The translations under genes and the position numbers were made by a program. The notes under the pieces are model-generated. The model was not told the DNA's origin and ran no database searches. It saw only the letters and a program-made list of their open reading frames with translations. Below, piece by piece: positions 39,546 to 45,153 of a stretch of DNA of 64,000 nucleotides. Positions within the stretch are counted from its first letter, which is position 1. Every line of letters begins with the position of its first letter. Origin of the DNA: Ornithinicoccus hortensis (GTDB taxonomy: Bacteria; Actinomycetota; Actinomycetes; Actinomycetales; Dermatophilaceae). The stretch is from the NCBI RefSeq assembly GCF_006716185.1, contig NZ_VFOP01000001.1, positions 3,596,001-3,660,000 on the forward strand, given 5' to 3'.

Positions 39546-39652
39546 TCACGATTTGATAACGAAACGGGGGTAGCAGGTACTCTGGAGCCTCGGCCGCCGT
39601 CCTATCGGCGATGACCGAGCGGGCACCGGCCTGCACCACAGTGGAGGGAACC

Positions 39653-41245
39653 ATGACTGCACCAACCAATGGCGTCTTCGACCGCCCGCAGGGGGCGGAC
39701 CCGTACGCGCCAGAGCCCGGCAACGCGGGCAAGAAGACCGGAATCATCATCACCCTGGCCCTCGTGGCCGCCCTCGTGATCGGCGGTGGCGCCTTCGCGG
39801 TGACCCGGGTCCTCGGCGGCGGCGGCGACCAGCCCTCGAGCGCGCTCCCGGGCGGCAGCGCCGCCTACGTCCGGATGGACATCGATCCCAGCGTCGGCCA
39901 GAAGATCGCCGCCGTGCGCTTCCTGAAGGACCTCGACCCGGAGGTCACCGCGACGCTGGAGAGCGACGACATGCGTCGCGAGTTCTTCGAGATGATCGCC
40001 GAGGACGAGCCGTCGCTGAGCAACATCGACTACGACACCGACATCGAGCCCTGGCTGGGCGACCGGCTCGGCGTGGGCGTCGTCCCGCAGGGCGAGGACG
40101 AGCCGCAGGTCGCGGTCGCCCTGCAGGTGACCGACGAGGGCGCCGCCGAGGAGGGCCTCACCAAGCTGTTCGAGGCCTCCGAGGGCTCCGACCAGGCCGG
40201 CTGGTTCTTCCACGGCGACTACGTCGTGCTGTCCTCCGCCGAGATGATCGACGACGTGCAGGCCGGCGTCGAGGCCGGGACCCTGGCCGAGAACGAGACC
40301 TTCACCGGTGACATCGAGGCGCTCGGCGACGAGGGCGTGCTGTCCTTCTGGGCCGACGGCGAGCAGCTCGCCCCCTACCTCGACGACGCCGAGGGCGCGC
40401 TGGACGGGGTCCCGGACCCGACCGGCATGTCCGGGGTCGCCGGCCCGGGCGCGATCGGCGGGTTCCTGTCCGGCTCCACCCTCGACGAGGCGCAGACCGG
40501 CCGCGTCGCCGCCGCCGTCCGGTTCGGCGAGGACCACATCGAGCTGCACGGCATCACCCGCGGCTTCCCGGTCCAGATCGAGGACGGCGACACCGCCCAG
40601 CTGGTGCAGGACCTCCCCGAGGACACCGCGGTGGCCTTCGGCCAGGAGCACGGCGACCAGCTCGTCGCGATCGCCTTCGAGCAGATGAACAAGGCGATGC
40701 CGGACGAGATGGCCCAGATGCAGTCCGAGGCGTCCGCGCAGGGCTTCGAGATCCCCGGTGACATCCAGACCCTGGTGGGTCAGAGCCTGGCCATCGGGGT
40801 GGGCCCCCAGATCGCCGAGATCGACCAGATCGACGACCCGTCCCAGATCCCGGCCGTGATCCGGGTGCAGACCGACACCGACGCCGCCAACGCGGTCATC
40901 GACAAGGCGGTCGTGGCGGCCGGCGCGACCCCGGAGGACCTGGAGGCCTACGTGGTGCGCCGGGTCGACGACGGCGTGCTGAGCCTGGGCCTGAGCCAGG
41001 ACTACGTGGACAGCGCCGTCGCGGGCGGGCTGGGTGACAACCCGACCTTCCAGTCCGCGGTTCCCAACGCGGCCGAGGCCGACAGCGTGTTCTACGTCGA
41101 CCTCAACGCCTTCGAGCAGTACTACCTCTCGGAGATCACCGACGAGAACACCCGCGCCAGCGTCGAGCAGATCGCGGCCGTCGGCATGAGCGCCACCTGG
41201 TCCGGCGAGAACGGCGAGTTCACCCTGCGGGTGGTCGCTGACTGA
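39653..41245 (+). CDS. DUF3352-type membrane-anchored extracellular protein
   Basis: A 530-residue protein with a short cytoplasmic N-terminus, one transmembrane segment at about residues 30-52 (IIITLALVAALVIGGGAFAV) and a large acidic extracytoplasmic domain. The start SSALPGGSAAYVRMDIDPS and later alternation of aspartate-rich strands match DUF3352-like proteins of actinobacteria; assignment to that family is from memory. ATG 39653 is preceded by GGAGGG. The gene ends at a very strong hairpin and is therefore a single transcription unit, divergent from the NlpC/P60 gene. Function unknown. Confidence 0.7.
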   Translation: MTAPTNGVFDRPQGADPYAPEPGNAGKKTGIIITLALVAALVIGGGAFAVTRVLGGGGDQPSSALPGGSAAYVRMDIDPSVGQKIAAVRFLKDLDPEVTATLESDDMRREFFEMIAEDEPSLSNIDYDTDIEPWLGDRLGVGVVPQGEDEPQVAVALQVTDEGAAEEGLTKLFEASEGSDQAGWFFHGDYVVLSSAEMIDDVQAGVEAGTLAENETFTGDIEALGDEGVLSFWADGEQLAPYLDDAEGALDGVPDPTGMSGVAGPGAIGGFLSGSTLDEAQTGRVAAAVRFGEDHIELHGITRGFPVQIEDGDTAQLVQDLPEDTAVAFGQEHGDQLVAIAFEQMNKAMPDEMAQMQSEASAQGFEIPGDIQTLVGQSLAIGVGPQIAEIDQIDDPSQIPAVIRVQTDTDAANAVIDKAVVAAGATPEDLEAYVVRRVDDGVLSLGLSQDYVDSAVAGGLGDNPTFQSAVPNAAEADSVFYVDLNAFEQYYLSEITDENTRASVEQIAAVGMSATWSGENGEFTLRVVAD

Positions 41246-41322: not shown

Positions 41323-41823
41323 ATGCCGTTGACCGTGCGCCGGGCGCTGCCCGAGGAGTTCGACCGGGTCGGCGAGATGACCGCGACGGCCTACGTGCAC
41401 GACGGCCACCTGCCCGCCGACTACTCCTACGTGCAGGTGCTCCGGGACGCGCCCGCCCGGGCCCGGGAGGCCGACCTGCTGGTCGCCACCGACGGGACCA
41501 CCCTGCTGGGCACGGTCACCTGGTGCCCGGACGGGTCGGCATACACAGAGCTCGCCGGCCCGGGCGAGGGCGAGTTCCGGATGCTCGCGGTGCCCCCGGA
41601 GGCGCGACGTCGCGGCGCGGCCCGGGCCCTGGTGCGAGCCTGCCTCGACCGGAGCAGTGCCGCGGGGCACACCCGGGTCGTGCTCTCCACGCAGCCCGGT
41701 ATGACGGCAGCCCACGCGCTCTACGCCTCGTTCGGCTTCGTGCGTGACCCCGACCGGGACTGGGAACCGGCCCCCGGCGTCCAACTGCTGGCCTACGCCC
41801 TCGAGCTGGGGCCAGGTAGCTGA
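41323..41823 (+). CDS. GNAT-family N-acetyltransferase
   Basis: A 166-residue acyl-CoA transferase with the standard GNAT layout: LTVRRALPEEFDRVGEMTATAY at the N-terminus, strand 4 FRMLAVPPEARRRGAARALV including the acetyl-CoA pyrophosphate loop (RRRGAA), and the C-terminal AHALYASFGFVRDPDRD. The substrate cannot be inferred. The ATG lies inside one of the GTATGCCG octamers discussed in the findings. It is convergent with the sulfotransferase gene (22-base gap). Confidence 0.88.
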   Translation: MPLTVRRALPEEFDRVGEMTATAYVHDGHLPADYSYVQVLRDAPARAREADLLVATDGTTLLGTVTWCPDGSAYTELAGPGEGEFRMLAVPPEARRRGAARALVRACLDRSSAAGHTRVVLSTQPGMTAAHALYASFGFVRDPDRDWEPAPGVQLLAYALELGPGS

Positions 41824-41845: not shown

Positions 41846-42736
41846 TCAGGCCGGCGGGAGCTGGATGCCCTTGGCGGCCAACTGGGCCAGGGCGCGCTCG
41901 TAGGCGTCCTCGATCTCCCGCACCTGTGCATCGTCGAGTCCCCCGCGCCACGACCCGGCGTGCAGCGACCCGGCGGCGACCTCGTCGTCGAAGAAGCGCC
42001 GCACCGGCTCACTGTCCGTCACCCCGGCGAACTCGAGCAGCCCGGCATACTCCTCCTCCCGCCGGCTCACCACGAGGGACTCCAGCCGGATGGCCCGGAC
42101 CCGGTCCGGATCGGCCTTGCTCATCGACTGCGCGATCCGGGTCATCCCCTGACGCCACCAGGTGAGCGCCGAGAGCGTGTCGTCCGGTCCCCACGACCGG
42201 CGCGCCACCGACGACGCCACGTCGCGGCCGTCCCGGACCATGTGGACGACCCGGGCGTCCGGGAACATCCGGCAGAGGGCGTCGGCACGCTTGCCGTTCG
42301 GCGGGGTCATCTCCACCCAGGTGCGGGCGCCGGTGCGCTCGACGAACGGCTGGACCAGGTCGTCAATGAACTGTCGGCAGGCCCCCCACGGGTCCGCCTC
42401 GTGGGCCGCGTGCAGCCGGGCCAGCCCTGCGTCGAGCGTGGACTCCTCCGCGATCACGTGGATGCCGCGGGGGCCCGAGTTGTTGGGCGGCCGCCAGAAC
42501 CAGAGGCGTCGCAGCTTCTCCTCGAAGGTCGCGACGTCGGTCCTGCCCGCCGCCACGTCGCACAACCCGCCGGCGTCCACGTGGAACCGGAGCTCGATCG
42601 GGATGAGGGCCAGGTCGGGGTGCTGACCGAGGAGCTGGGCCGCGATCGTCGTGCCGCTGCGTCCGGTCCCCCCGACGAACAGCGGGGCGACGACGGCCCT
42701 GCCTCCGGGGGTCGCAGGTGTGGATCCGGGAAGCAC
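41846..42736 (-). CDS. Sulfotransferase-family protein
   Basis: PAPS-dependent sulfotransferases carry a 5'-phosphosulfate loop and a 3'-phosphate site, both visible here: FVGGTGRSGTTIAAQLLGQHP at about residues 20-40 and RVVHMVRDGRDVASSVARR near 145-165. The middle region (TWVEMTPPNGKRADAL) matches the family. The likely acceptor is a glycolipid or other envelope sugar, but no neighbouring gene supports a pathway. It lies at the edge of the tRNA-Thr island but its composition looks like core genome. Confidence 0.82.
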   Translation of the reverse strand: MLPGSTPATPGGRAVVAPLFVGGTGRSGTTIAAQLLGQHPDLALIPIELRFHVDAGGLCDVAAGRTDVATFEEKLRRLWFWRPPNNSGPRGIHVIAEESTLDAGLARLHAAHEADPWGACRQFIDDLVQPFVERTGARTWVEMTPPNGKRADALCRMFPDARVVHMVRDGRDVASSVARRSWGPDDTLSALTWWRQGMTRIAQSMSKADPDRVRAIRLESLVVSRREEEYAGLLEFAGVTDSEPVRRFFDDEVAAGSLHAGSWRGGLDDAQVREIEDAYERALAQLAAKGIQLPPA

Positions 42737-42824: not shown

Positions 42825-42868
42825 ACGAGAGGCCCCGACCAGCGTGCGTGCTGGTCGGGGCCTCTCGT
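42825..42868. terminator. Strong hairpin, probably the original tRNA-Thr terminator
   Basis: A perfect 19-bp stem (ACGAGAGGCCCCGACCAGC and complement) with a 6-base loop, just three bases from the left 44-bp tRNA repeat. On the minus strand it would follow the tRNA-Thr 3' end directly if the 2.2-kb insert were absent. Confidence 0.8.
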
Positions 42869-42871
42869 GCC

Positions 42872-42915
42872 GGAGCCGCCTATCGGAATCGAACCGATGA
42901 CCTATTCATTACGAG
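42872..42915 (-). repeat. Attachment-site repeat, distal copy (3' part of tRNA-Thr)
   Basis: These 44 bases are identical to 45078-45121, the 3' part of tRNA-Thr from the discriminator base to the 5' edge of the anticodon loop. The CCA of the real tRNA is CCG here. Identity stops abruptly at the anticodon-loop boundary, as expected for an att site used by a tyrosine integrase. Confidence 0.88.
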
Positions 42916-43057
42916 AGACGCGAGGGTTGGGAACCACCGTCACGGAACGTACTGACCAGCGAGAACCGTGGGCAGTGACTGCAGCCGTGACGGTGCGAGA
43001 GGATTCTCCGGTGCCAAAAGTGCGCCACTGTCAGGGGCACGGTGTAGGCAGTTCACC

Positions 43058-43435
43058 ATGACCGAGACATCGTTCGAAGACCCGCAAGCCCTCATCGCCA
43101 ATGCTGCCGTCGCCGCCTGGGAGGCTCATGCTCGGGCTGCCCGTCTTCCATTAATGGAGTGGACGTTCGAGAACACCGACGACGTATGGACCATGGTTGG
43201 AAGGCCCTCCCACGAAGGGGCATCAGCCATCACCGCCGCAGTCGAGTGGACGAACGCCTTGGACCAATTCGGAGACGGTTGGCCGGAGCCAAACAAGAAG
43301 CACGGGGTCTGGACCTGGACGAAGCATGTTGGTGTCCTGGTCGAACTAGCCGTCGTCGCCGACCGTGACGCATTGGAGCAGTGGCGGGGAGAGCAGGCCG
43401 AGGACCCAGACTGGCGAGAAGGAAAGCGAGCATGA
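43058..43435 (+). CDS. Hypothetical protein in the tRNA-Thr island, first gene of a two-gene unit
   Basis: A 125-residue soluble protein rich in Trp and acidic residues (MEWTFENTDDVWTMVGR, then TNALDQFGDGWPEPNKKHGVWTWTKH). No signal, membrane segment or known motif. ATG 43058 is chosen because upstream codons are poorly coding-like. Its TGA overlaps the ATG of the HicB-like gene by four bases, so the two are probably translated together. Codon use is less GC-biased than in the core genes, consistent with transfer. Function unknown. Confidence 0.6.
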   Translation: MTETSFEDPQALIANAAVAAWEAHARAARLPLMEWTFENTDDVWTMVGRPSHEGASAITAAVEWTNALDQFGDGWPEPNKKHGVWTWTKHVGVLVELAVVADRDALEQWRGEQAEDPDWREGKRA

Positions 43436-43626
43436 AGATCCGGGCCTCCGCGCGAAGGAGCGGCGAGTGGTGGGCCATCTCGGCCCTTAACGTCGACGGG
43501 CTGCATACCCAAGCACGGGATCGCGACGACATCGCACCCATAGTGGCGGATGCGGCAGCCCTGTTGCTTGCAATGCCGGCGGAACATATCGAGGTTGAAG
43601 TCATCTTTGACGTCCGGGAGGACTGA
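43432..43626 (+). CDS. HicB-like small protein (possible solo antitoxin)
   Basis: A 64-residue protein with the beta-strand pattern of partial RNase H-fold HicB antitoxins: KIRASARRSGEWWAISALNV, GLHTQARDRDDIAPIVADAA and a C-terminal IEVEVIFDV strand. There is no DNA-binding C-terminal domain and no HicA toxin beside it. It overlaps the upstream hypothetical gene (ATGA), so the partner may be that 125-residue protein rather than HicA. The assignment is by pattern and moderate. Confidence 0.55.
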   Translation: MKIRASARRSGEWWAISALNVDGLHTQARDRDDIAPIVADAAALLLAMPAEHIEVEVIFDVRED

Positions 43627-43757
43627 TGCCCACTGGGGTCGAGCCGGAGCGGCGTAGGCGGGGGTGCGCAGAGGGCGAGGCACGAGCCCGGAGCGCGGGG
43701 GTCCCTGCCGGAGCCGTCGTAGGCCGACCGCGCCGAAGGCGCGCCTTGAGTCAGTAA
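43626..43757 (+). CDS. Possible 43-residue arginine-rich peptide
   Basis: An ATG overlapping the stop of the HicB-like gene (TGATG) opens 43 codons (MPTGVEPERRRRGCAEGEA...RRRRALSQ) ending in TAA. The overlap suggests coupling, but the composition is that expected of random GC-rich DNA and no ribosome-binding site stands out. Listed with low confidence. Confidence 0.2.
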   Translation: MPTGVEPERRRRGCAEGEARARSAGVPAGAVVGRPRRRRALSQ

Positions 43758-44159
43758 GGAAAGTTCTCACGGCGCACGGAGAGATTTACCCACATGCCGA
43801 TGTGCGGTGAGGTCCCAGAAGGCACGGTGACCACGTCCCATGGTGCACCTGCATGCATCCTTCACACGATTTCCGGACTCAGCGTGAAGGATGCGTGCAC
43901 GTGGACGGAACCTGCGGGTCCAGGGAACGTCCGGATCTGCCGCGCTGCGGAAGCGATGGCACTCCTCAGGAGTCTTCACCCGGCCGCGACGTGCGTCTCG
44001 TATTCCGTGCCGAACGCCACCGAGCACCTCACCGCACCCCACGCCGACGCCGGCCGCCAGTTCCGTCCTGACGGTCAAGGATTGGGGCGATTGGCATGCG
44101 TCTGCCGCGTCGCACACCCGGACTGCCGCATCGCGCGCTGCCGGTGACAGACTGAGGAC
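43758..44159. other. Island stretch without a convincing gene; contains a 20-bp imperfect inverted repeat
   Basis: No frame here has both a start and coding-like composition. The only structure is an inverted repeat: 43846-43865 (CACCTGCATGCATCCTTCAC) against 43884-43903, with two mismatches and an 18-base spacer. It may be a terminator or a protein-binding dyad of the element. Confidence 0.5.
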
Positions 44160-44489
44160 ATGCGGTTCCTGCAGGCAGACGAGGTGGCTGTCGGGCTGCG
44201 TGTGTTGTACGCCGGGCATGCGGACTTCCTCGGGATTGCTGATCCCGAACTGCTGCAGCGCGGGCACATCTTGGTGCATCACCACCCCGGCGTCGTCAAG
44301 AAGTTCTACGGGCCCGGCGTCAATCACTGCATCGTTGAGTTCGTCGGACTTGAGGATGAGCCGATTAGCTTTGCGGTGGGTTTCGACCATCTTGAAGACG
44401 GTCACTATGCAGGTTTGCTTGTGCCAACCGAGGAGGAATGGCAGCAAGCGGACTCCTCCGGATGGTGGACAGCGGCGCCCGGATCCTGA
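44160..44489 (+). CDS. Hypothetical protein in the tRNA-Thr island
   Basis: A 109-residue soluble protein with even, natural-looking composition (LRVLYAGHADFLGIADPELL, then FYGPGVNHCIVEFVGLEDEP and VGFDHLEDGHYAGLLVPTEE). GAGG lies close before the ATG. No family recognised; no signal peptide or membrane segment. It stands alone between non-coding stretches and is less GC-biased than core genes, so it was probably brought by the element. Confidence 0.55.
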   Translation: MRFLQADEVAVGLRVLYAGHADFLGIADPELLQRGHILVHHHPGVVKKFYGPGVNHCIVEFVGLEDEPISFAVGFDHLEDGHYAGLLVPTEEEWQQADSSGWWTAAPGS

Positions 44490-45076
44490 CGCCAGTGACG
44501 GCTACCTCACTCTGTGGCGGCATGGGCGCTTGTCGCACGCTACTGCCGCGATGAGCGTGACCGTATGGCGATATGCATCGGTGGCATGTCGACCTGAGTA
44601 GTTGGCGCCACCATCGGCAGGACGATAGCGTGCTGACGCAGAGGTGTTCCGCTCGGCGCGGTTCCTGAGCTGTTCGGACATAGTCAGCCCGTCCCTGATA
44701 GAGGCCGACAATCAGGCCGAGAGTGAGCCGGGTCAAGCGGCTTCCTCCGCACCGGCCCAGCCTTCGCAGGCGCGGAGCGCGTCCCTTAAGTTGCTACCAA
44801 CTACGCCGCTTGACGCGGGGAACGAAGGCCCACGATGAACGGCCAGGGACGGGCACCCATCTTCGCGCCTGGCCGACGTCCGGCACCTACATGCCTGGTG
44901 TCGCGTTTGTGCTCAGTGTTGCCAGTGCGCGCGACCGTGTGTGCCAAAAGTGCGGAACGGCTGGCTCTTCCCGAGGTGCTTAAGGAAGCTGGCCGCGCCG
45001 GGCTCATGGACGACGACGCAGCTCGCTCTTTGCCTTCACCAGCAGGAACGCCCCCGACCGGAGTCGAGGGCGTTGC
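44490..45076. other. Island stretch of 587 bases with no supported gene
   Basis: Both strands have only short frames. Minus-strand codons around 44740-44830 look protein-like in pieces (LRDALRACEGWAGAEEA) but are broken by stops, suggesting decayed coding DNA. A 9-bp inverted repeat (GTCAAGCGG at 44732-44740, CCGCTTGAC at 44806-44814) and the second copy of the 14-bp direct repeat (44941-44954) are the only structures I see. Confidence 0.5.
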
Positions 45077-45153
45077 TGGAGCCGCCTATCGGAATCGAAC
45101 CGATGACCTATTCATTACGAGTGAATCGCTCTAGCCGACTGAGCTAAGGCGGC
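45077..45153 (-). tRNA. tRNA-Thr (anticodon CGT)
   Basis: On the minus strand the sequence folds into a complete cloverleaf of 77 nucleotides including an encoded CCA. The acceptor stem pairs GCCGCCT with AGGCGGC; the anticodon stem is ATTCA/TGAAT with loop CTCGTAA, giving anticodon CGT (codon ACG, threonine); the T-arm has GGTTCGATTCC. The 3' half is duplicated at 42872-42915, marking it as an integration site. Confidence 0.96.

What the first reader, a model, noticed from the sequence alone, without database searches (positions are those of the whole stretch)
42872..45121. tRNA-Thr attachment-site duplication encloses a decayed element with no integrase
A 44-bp exact direct repeat joins the 3' part of tRNA-Thr(CGT) with a distal copy, ending precisely at the anticodon-loop edge. 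A perfect 19-bp hairpin sits three bases beyond the distal copy, where the tRNA terminator would be before insertion. The 2.2 kb between is less GC-rich, sparsely coding and holds genes of unknown function. Small integrase-less elements at tRNA genes are either relics or satellites mobilised by a helper.
Basis: partly seen in the sequence, partly recalled or inferred. Interest (0 to 1): 0.65.

Follow-up and report, generated by a model that had tools for sequence, protein, structure and literature searches.

The report
Integrase-less mini-island at a threonine tRNA
A 2.2-kb piece of foreign DNA sits in a bacterial threonine-tRNA gene between two matching attachment sites but carries no enzyme to move itself; this is a small stranded mobile element of a kind already known, most likely a remnant and possibly a passenger of another element's integrase.

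Summary
A 44-bp exact repeat joins the 3' part of tRNA-Thr(CGT), anticodon loop included, to a copy 2,206 bp away, with a perfect 19-bp hairpin 3 bp beyond. In congeners the tRNA normally lies beside a DUF3352 gene (within 175 bp in 19 of 30; a terminator-like hairpin 0-10 bp from the tRNA in 9 of the 10 same-orientation cases). The window is an occupied site with a displaced terminator. Three of 30 congeners (G001, G013, G016) carry other elements there. New: GTGCCAAAAGTGCG lies once near each end of the element; its 13-base core occurs nowhere else in the genome. G001 has a different 18-mer so placed, which in viral contigs falls on the 3' end of integrase genes in 2 of 3 hits. I read these as integrase arm sites, for the window by analogy only. 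Of the four elements only G013's keeps an integrase. Best reading: a non-autonomous, CIME-like tRNA island with its att sites kept and its integrase lost or supplied in trans; a new member of a known kind. Relic or satellite is not settled.

The parts
45077..45153 (-). tRNA-Thr(CGT), integration target, restored by the element
   Evidence: ARAGORN; Rfam RF00005 70.5 bits
45078..45121 (.). att core copy inside the tRNA (3' half plus the anticodon loop)
   Evidence: (D1)
42872..42915 (.). distal att core copy, displaced tRNA 3' fragment, 44/44 identical
42825..42868 (.). perfect 19-bp hairpin, displaced original tRNA terminator
   Evidence: I3; fold z -5.6; same position as hairpins of empty relatives
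45047..45074 (.). hairpin on the element side, new tRNA terminator
43011..43024 (+). GTGCCAAAAGTGCG, putative integrase arm site, distal end (139 bp from core start)
   Evidence: its 13-base core occurs only twice in the genome
44941..44954 (+). GTGCCAAAAGTGCG, putative integrase arm site, tRNA end (136 bp before the tRNA)
43058..43435 (+). ORF o1, 125 aa, orphan
   Evidence: no match in 185 other genomes of the family, plasmids, phages; one weak 39% hit over 33 aa in viral contigs (45)
43432..43626 (+). ORF o2, 64 aa, HicB-like, start overlaps the stop of o1
   Evidence: PHROG 5243 (no function) 3.4e-7 and PHROG 8245 (HicB-like antitoxin) 1.6e-6; no Pfam, NCBIfam or PADLOC match
44160..44489 (+). 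ORF o3, 109 aa, mobile cargo gene of unknown function, weakly SH3-like in the model
   Evidence: 14 of 186 genomes including own; dN/dS 0.16-0.28 in three comparisons; model pLDDT 81, best PDB match E 0.036
43843..43906 (.). palindrome inside the element, member of a dispersed repeat of the genus
   Evidence: (I2)
41846..42736 (-). sulfotransferase gene (PF13469) outside the distal att copy
   Evidence: no tblastn hit in the fetched stretches of 30 relatives
41323..41823 (+). GNAT acetyltransferase gene outside the distal att copy, among the fetched stretches shared with G016 only
39611..41245 (+). DUF3352 gene, conserved neighbour of the empty site
   Evidence: PF11832 7.9e-12; synteny

Best explanation
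A non-autonomous integrative element (CIME-like tRNA island). A tyrosine integrase, no longer encoded here, recombined an element into the anticodon loop of tRNA-Thr(CGT). The element supplied an identical 3' tRNA half and a new terminator, and pushed the old 3' half and terminator 2.2 kb away. Shown: the core duplication, the displaced terminator, the empty site in relatives, the absence of any integrase gene, and a rare direct repeat at each end. Inferred: that the 14-bp repeats are the integrase's arm sites, that integration was fairly recent (44/44 core and 14/14 arm identity), and that the integrase was lost by deletion, leaving HicB-like and orphan cargo. If a matching integrase entered the cell the element should be excisable; no second place with the arm motif is in this genome.
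For: (repeat, tRNA). (synteny, empty sites, hairpins); direct repeat pairs at comparable places in other elements of the site: G001 18 bp at 144/54, G013 13 bp at 151/68; the window motif's 13-base core twice in its genome, both in the element, 4 places in 186 genomes in all (16 for the pattern read backwards); the 16-base core of G001's repeat occurs twice in its genome, both at element ends, and once more in 186 genomes (control 1); its 18-mer has 3 viral-contig hits, 2 of them on the 3' end of PF00589 integrase genes. In G013 the repeat likewise lies inside the 3' end of its integrase; integrase in G013's element only. Literature passages on CIMEs: PMC5704250, PMC3146451.
Against: A shared direct repeat of 14 bp or more also turns up in 45 of 4,000 random window pairs (drawn from the 30 fetched stretches), so by length the window's pair is about a 1% event; its rarity, not its length, carries the case. 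The 14-mer can also encode CQKC, a zinc-ribbon-like piece: by reading the frame, two viral-contig matches look like that (L133, L193), and the window's right copy falls in that frame of an 86-aa ORF without a Pfam match; the left copy has no listed ORF of 40 aa or more in that frame. No place was found where the window's motif lies at the end of a tyrosine integrase gene: of all 120 viral-contig stretches held, 6 have an integrase by a home-made profile, none with the motif on the gene's end. The one other copy in the genus (G014) lies about 180 bp past a serine recombinase gene, for which arm sites are not expected. G016 has no repeat pair longer than chance. No conjugation, replication or phage gene was recognised, so the parent type is unknown.
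Confidence: 0.76

Rival explanations
1. Satellite (hitcher): the element never had its own integrase and is moved in trans by integrases of phages or ICEs that use the same tRNA-Thr and arm sites. (Overlaps the best explanation, which leaves this open as the less likely half.)
For: Core and both arm-like repeats are intact and identical while no integrase trace remains; two other elements at the same tRNA also lack an integrase (G001, G016).
Against: No helper with the arm motif in the own genome; none within 2 mismatches elsewhere in the window or in the fetched surroundings of 7 of its 8 PF00589 genes. None with core plus arm geometry in genome contigs (1 hit, no tRNA near it; the own genome may be left out there). 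In viral contigs a shorter pattern gave 24 hits, of which I looked at 3, none convincing. No second copy of the element in the own genome or the 30 congeners.
Confidence: 0.2
2. Decayed prophage end: the remnant of a phage that integrated at tRNA-Thr, like the Mycobacterium prophage prophiT36-2b whose integrase gene adjoins a tRNA-Thr(CGT). (A special case of the relic reading.)
For: A phage integrase gene ends 4 bp from tRNA-Thr(CGT) in OQ417968; HicB-like proteins occur in phages; G001's remnant at the same site carries a peptidoglycan-binding protein and its arm motif matches viral contigs, one of them beside an amidase / peptidoglycan-binding gene.
Against: No phage structural or lysis protein among the ORFs of the window's element that were scanned.
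Confidence: 0.25
3. Chance or tRNA-array relic: the distal copy is a leftover of tandem tRNA duplication, not an att site.
For: tRNA fragments do get scattered in this genus, for example inside an ISL3-type transposon.
Against: One tRNA in each of the 30 stretches; the copy ends at the anticodon-loop edge, a displaced terminator follows it, DNA of other composition lies between, and three other elements share the arrangement.
Confidence: 0.02

Closest known systems
CIME (cis-mobilizable element), as defined in PMC5704250: lost integration and transfer genes, kept attL and attR
   Same: att cores kept at both ends, no integration or transfer gene recognised, tRNA site shared with an integrase-bearing element in a congener (G013)
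   Different: Parent element unknown; no ICE or IME seen in tandem in the surrounding window region; very small (2.2 kb)
ssrA genomic islands of Dehalococcoides without an integration module (15 reported, PMC3146451)
   Same: Island bounded by an RNA gene and its displaced 3' fragment, without its own integrase
   Different: The islands there that keep a module use a serine recombinase at ssrA, in tandem arrays; here one element in tRNA-Thr, with arm-like repeats pointing to a tyrosine integrase
Islander-type tRNA islands with an anticodon-centred attP (PMC4383910)
   Same: tRNA plus displaced 3' fragment; anticodon-loop subsite (2083 of its islands)
   Different: Islander requires an integrase gene within the island; absent here
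G013 element at the same tRNA in a congener (L056)
   Same: Same target, same crossover end, an arm-like repeat at each end
   Different: 8 kb, carries a tyrosine integrase and HTH proteins; different arm sequence

Membership tests
CIME | retains attL and attR | tested here: met
   core repeat; arm-like repeats (that the arms work is inferred)
CIME | no integration gene | tested here: met
   PF00589 and PF00239 absent from the element
CIME | no transfer gene | tested here: met
   no family match to a transfer protein: Pfam on ten ORFs and five, PHROGs on four, NCBIfam and PADLOC on three
CIME | derived from an ICE or IME by decay | tested here: inconclusive
   no related complete element found
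CIME | mobilised in cis after accretion | not testable with these tools
   needs an excision or transfer assay
Islander tRNA island | tRNA gene plus displaced fragment in the same orientation | tested here: met
Islander tRNA island | integrase gene inside the island | tested here: not met
Prophage or phage satellite | phage structural, packaging or lysis genes | tested here: not met
   none among the ORFs scanned

The most novel reading that the evidence does not exclude
tRNA-Thr(CGT) in this genus hosts a class of integrase-less hitcher islands: three of the four elements found there keep the att core (two of them also a rare paired repeat) but no integrase, and are put in and out by transient helper integrases whose arm motif they share. 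On this reading the window's 2.2-kb element is a minimal satellite that borrows the integration step alone.
Probability: 0.2. Interest if true: 0.55.

Novelty: new member of a known kind. Interest (0 to 1): 0.3.

Why it matters
It gives a clean, small case with empty sites, an integrase-bearing neighbour element and readable arm-like motifs, in which to ask whether integrase-less islands are dead remnants or cargo for passing integrases. The paired-arm signature (a rare direct repeat inside both ends of a tRNA island) could also help to find islands that integrase-based searches such as Islander leave out, and to match orphan islands to helpers by arm motif.

Tried and rejected
Whole-element blastn against plasmids (52 records) and phages (427 records): among the 20 rows shown of each, the match lies in the tRNA copies. 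o1 has no relative in plasmids or phages; in viral contigs one weak 39% hit over 33 residues, not used. o2 in plasmids: 3 Rhodococcus records at 51%. o3 in viral contigs: nothing confirmed; in plasmids 11 distant hits, 10 of them Rhodococcus. The o3 model gave only weak SH3-like, FeoA-like and DUF4314-like folds (no match with E of 0.001 or below in PDB or BFVD), so no function is claimed. The o1 model (pLDDT 60) was not searched.

Rejected: a helper with the same arms in the own genome, and a complete relative by core plus arm pattern in genome contigs (one Alteromonas hit, no tRNA in the fetched stretch, taken as chance). In viral contigs one search gave 24 hits to a shorter pattern; one search printed 3 of the 24 (GC above 0.55 or an integrase hit by my profile), none of which looked like an att site; the other 21 were not looked at further. 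Six have an integrase, none with the motif on the gene's end; two come nearest (L133 inside the gene, L193 about 430 bp beyond its end) and read as chance matches in CQKC coding sequence. L193 also holds a tRNA-Thr(GGT) 2.3 kb off, which I did not pursue.

Not used as evidence: G016's three TGGTCGCA copies at 11-bp spacing (8 bp, within chance). Names recalled, from no call: XerC/XerD for two recombinases of the own genome, recombinase-in-trio, toxin and immunity for the G016 genes.

Literature searches were read as listings and brought no paper on this element; passages only were read in PMC5704250, PMC4383910, PMC3146451 and PMC11389934. Williams 2002 was seen only as a reference, not read.

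Full report
What is there. The window lies at 3,596,001-3,660,000 of a single-contig 3.94-Mb genome. tRNA-Thr(CGT) is at 45077-45153, minus strand. Its 3' part, 45078-45121, is repeated exactly at 42872-42915; the next best match of the tRNA in the window is 11 bp. The identity ends just past the seven-base anticodon loop. A 19-bp perfect hairpin stands 3 bp outside the distal copy, and another hairpin (45047-45074) stands 2 bp from the tRNA on the element side. The DNA between is 64.2% GC against 72.3%, lower than all 596 same-length windows.

Empty sites. I fetched the tRNA-Thr region of 30 congeners, with at least 7.5 kb on the tRNA's 3' side except G009 (2.8 kb, contig end). Where the stretches reach, gene order is thymidylate kinase, DNA polymerase III delta', alpha/beta hydrolase, tRNA-Thr, DUF3352. 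Measured to the end of the tblastn match, the tRNA lies within 175 bp of DUF3352 in 19 of 30: 10 in the window's orientation (58-175 bp) and 9 with the tRNA inverted (130-173 bp). In 8 of 30 the gap is longer (301-9,273 bp), and in 3 of 30 no DUF3352 was seen in the stretch. In 9 of the 10 same-orientation empty sites a terminator-like hairpin stands 0-10 bp from the tRNA; in the tenth (G025) the script found one further off, and another next to the tRNA is visible by eye. So the hairpin at 42825-42868 has the place of the original tRNA terminator. Between DUF3352 and that hairpin the window also has a GNAT gene, shared in these stretches only with G016, and a sulfotransferase found in none of the 30; these lie outside the element.

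Other elements at the same tRNA. A second tRNA 3' copy of 43 bp or more is present in 3 of 30 stretches: G001 (5.1 kb, 98% over 50 bp), G013 (8.0 kb, 91% over 43 bp) and G016 (8.6 kb, 90% over 49 bp); G023 has only a 26-bp piece about 163 bp away. PF00589 search with stops read through places a tyrosine integrase in G013's element (C22:24648-25154, next to the tRNA) and in none of G000's, G001's and G016's; resolvase domains are absent from all four elements. G001's remnant has a peptidoglycan-binding, cell-wall-binding protein, an acyltransferase and a Ro60 vWA fragment. G016's has an RHS-repeat protein. In G013 the tRNA now carries a GGGGG/CCCCC T stem while the displaced copy has AAGGG/CCCTT, which suggests that the element exchanged half of the host's tRNA gene; later mutation is not excluded.

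Arm-like repeats. Within about 400 bp of the ends the window's element has one long direct repeat, GTGCCAAAAGTGCG, at 139 bp from the core start on the distal side and 136 bp before the tRNA. By length this happens in 45 of 4,000 random pairs of stretches, so length alone is weak. But the 13-base core occurs only at these two places in the genome and at 4 places in 186 genomes of the family, against 16 for the pattern read backwards. G001 has an 18-bp pair (0 of 4,000 at its spacing; 1 of 16,000 over all four spacings) at 144/54, G013 a 13-bp pair (151 of 4,000 at its spacing) at 151/68; G016 has none beyond chance. The 16-base core of G001's repeat occurs twice in its genome, both at the element's ends, and once elsewhere in 186 genomes (control 1). 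In viral contigs the 18-mer has 3 hits: two lie on the 3' end of genes with a Phage_integrase domain (L254, L255); the third (L256) lies about 1.3 kb from a gene with amidase and peptidoglycan-binding domains. In G013 the repeat likewise lies inside the 3' end of the integrase gene. I therefore read the pairs as integrase arm-type sites: well supported for G001, by analogy for the window. Against it for the window: the 14-mer also encodes CQKC in one frame, none of the 120 viral-contig stretches holding it has it on an integrase gene's end, and G014's single copy lies about 180 bp past a serine recombinase gene.

Cargo. o1 (43058-43435) has no relative in 185 other family genomes. o2 (43432-43626) is HicB-like and overlaps o1's stop, suggesting one operon. 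o3 (44160-44489) has relatives in 13 other genomes of 186; in G008 and G019 the shared DNA is a 368-424 bp block, and dN/dS is 0.16-0.28 in three comparisons; distant relatives are on Rhodococcus plasmids. It is a real, mobile gene of unknown function. The HicB resemblance allows, but does not show, an addiction role.

How it works. Inferred: integrase-mediated crossover in the anticodon loop, repair of the tRNA by the element's own 3' half and terminator, then loss (or original absence) of the integrase. The 44/44 core and 14/14 arm identities suggest that not much time has passed, since the distal copy is not under tRNA selection. No cognate integrase is evident in the genome: its eight PF00589 hits are two that I take for XerC/XerD, a trio beside ISL3 transposase genes, one in a 744-aa frame, one phage-type integrase 28% identical to G013's and one weak hit; the motif is absent, within two mismatches, from the fetched surroundings of seven of the eight (the 744-aa frame's surroundings were not fetched). 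So it looks stranded at present.

Place among known things. CIMEs are described as elements that lost integration and transfer genes but kept attL and attR (PMC5704250, passages); 15 ssrA islands without integration modules are reported in Dehalococcoides (PMC3146451, passages); Islander's maps demand an integrase (PMC4383910, passages). A review of helper-dependent elements discusses integrase-less cassette arrays and MITEs (PMC11389934, passages). The window's element looks like a CIME; descent from an ICE or IME is untested. Ordinary in kind, with one usable extra: the paired rare repeat as a sign of orphan islands.

Noticed in passing
window 43843-43906; copies in G005, G006, G007, G023, G025: A roughly 65-bp palindrome (GTGCAC..CATCCTTCAC / GTGAAGGATG..GTGCAC) is dispersed in several congeners, three copies at 170-bp spacing in G007, but the element search found only this copy in the own genome.
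   Followed up: partly
L242 2102-6188, L074 14040-18124, L243, L244, L245, L246, L247: A 3.7-4.1 kb segment with an ISL3-family transposase, 97-99.6% identical in the pairs printed, in G002, G003, G004, G007, G019 (two copies) and G027, carries a tRNA-Thr 3' fragment with a terminator-like hairpin: a transposon that seems to have captured a tRNA end.
   Followed up: partly
9 of 30 congeners (L046, L047, L054, L055, L058, L062, L063, L070, L071): tRNA-Thr is inverted in place between the hydrolase and DUF3352 genes.
   Followed up: no
L056 8010-8054 and 15989-16065 (G013): The tRNA T stem is GGGGG/CCCCC, the displaced copy AAGGG/CCCTT, as if the element had replaced the 3' half of the host tRNA with another lineage's version; flanking-gene similarity was inconclusive.
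   Followed up: partly
L059 8284-13380 (G016): RHS/YD-repeat protein of 1698 aa with a small gene behind it, in an integrase-less island at the same tRNA-Thr; may be a toxin and immunity pair (a guess).
   Followed up: no
G000:C1:10815-13182 (L249): Three adjacent tyrosine recombinase genes flanked by ISL3 transposase genes, like the recombinase-in-trio elements that I recall.
   Followed up: no
L048 (G005), L059 (G016), L072 (G029), just 3' of the tRNA: Similar AGTGCAGGYCAG-type hairpins at the tRNA in three species with gaps of 357 bp, 9.3 kb and 3.0 kb, perhaps ends of one element family in different states of decay.
   Followed up: no
L066 704-729 (G023): A 26-bp tRNA 3' piece about 163 bp from the tRNA, between two terminator-like hairpins, looks like the scar of an earlier insertion.
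   Followed up: partly
L110 (G014:C15:292083): The only other copy of the window's arm motif in the genus lies about 180 bp past a serine recombinase gene; meaning unknown.
   Followed up: partly
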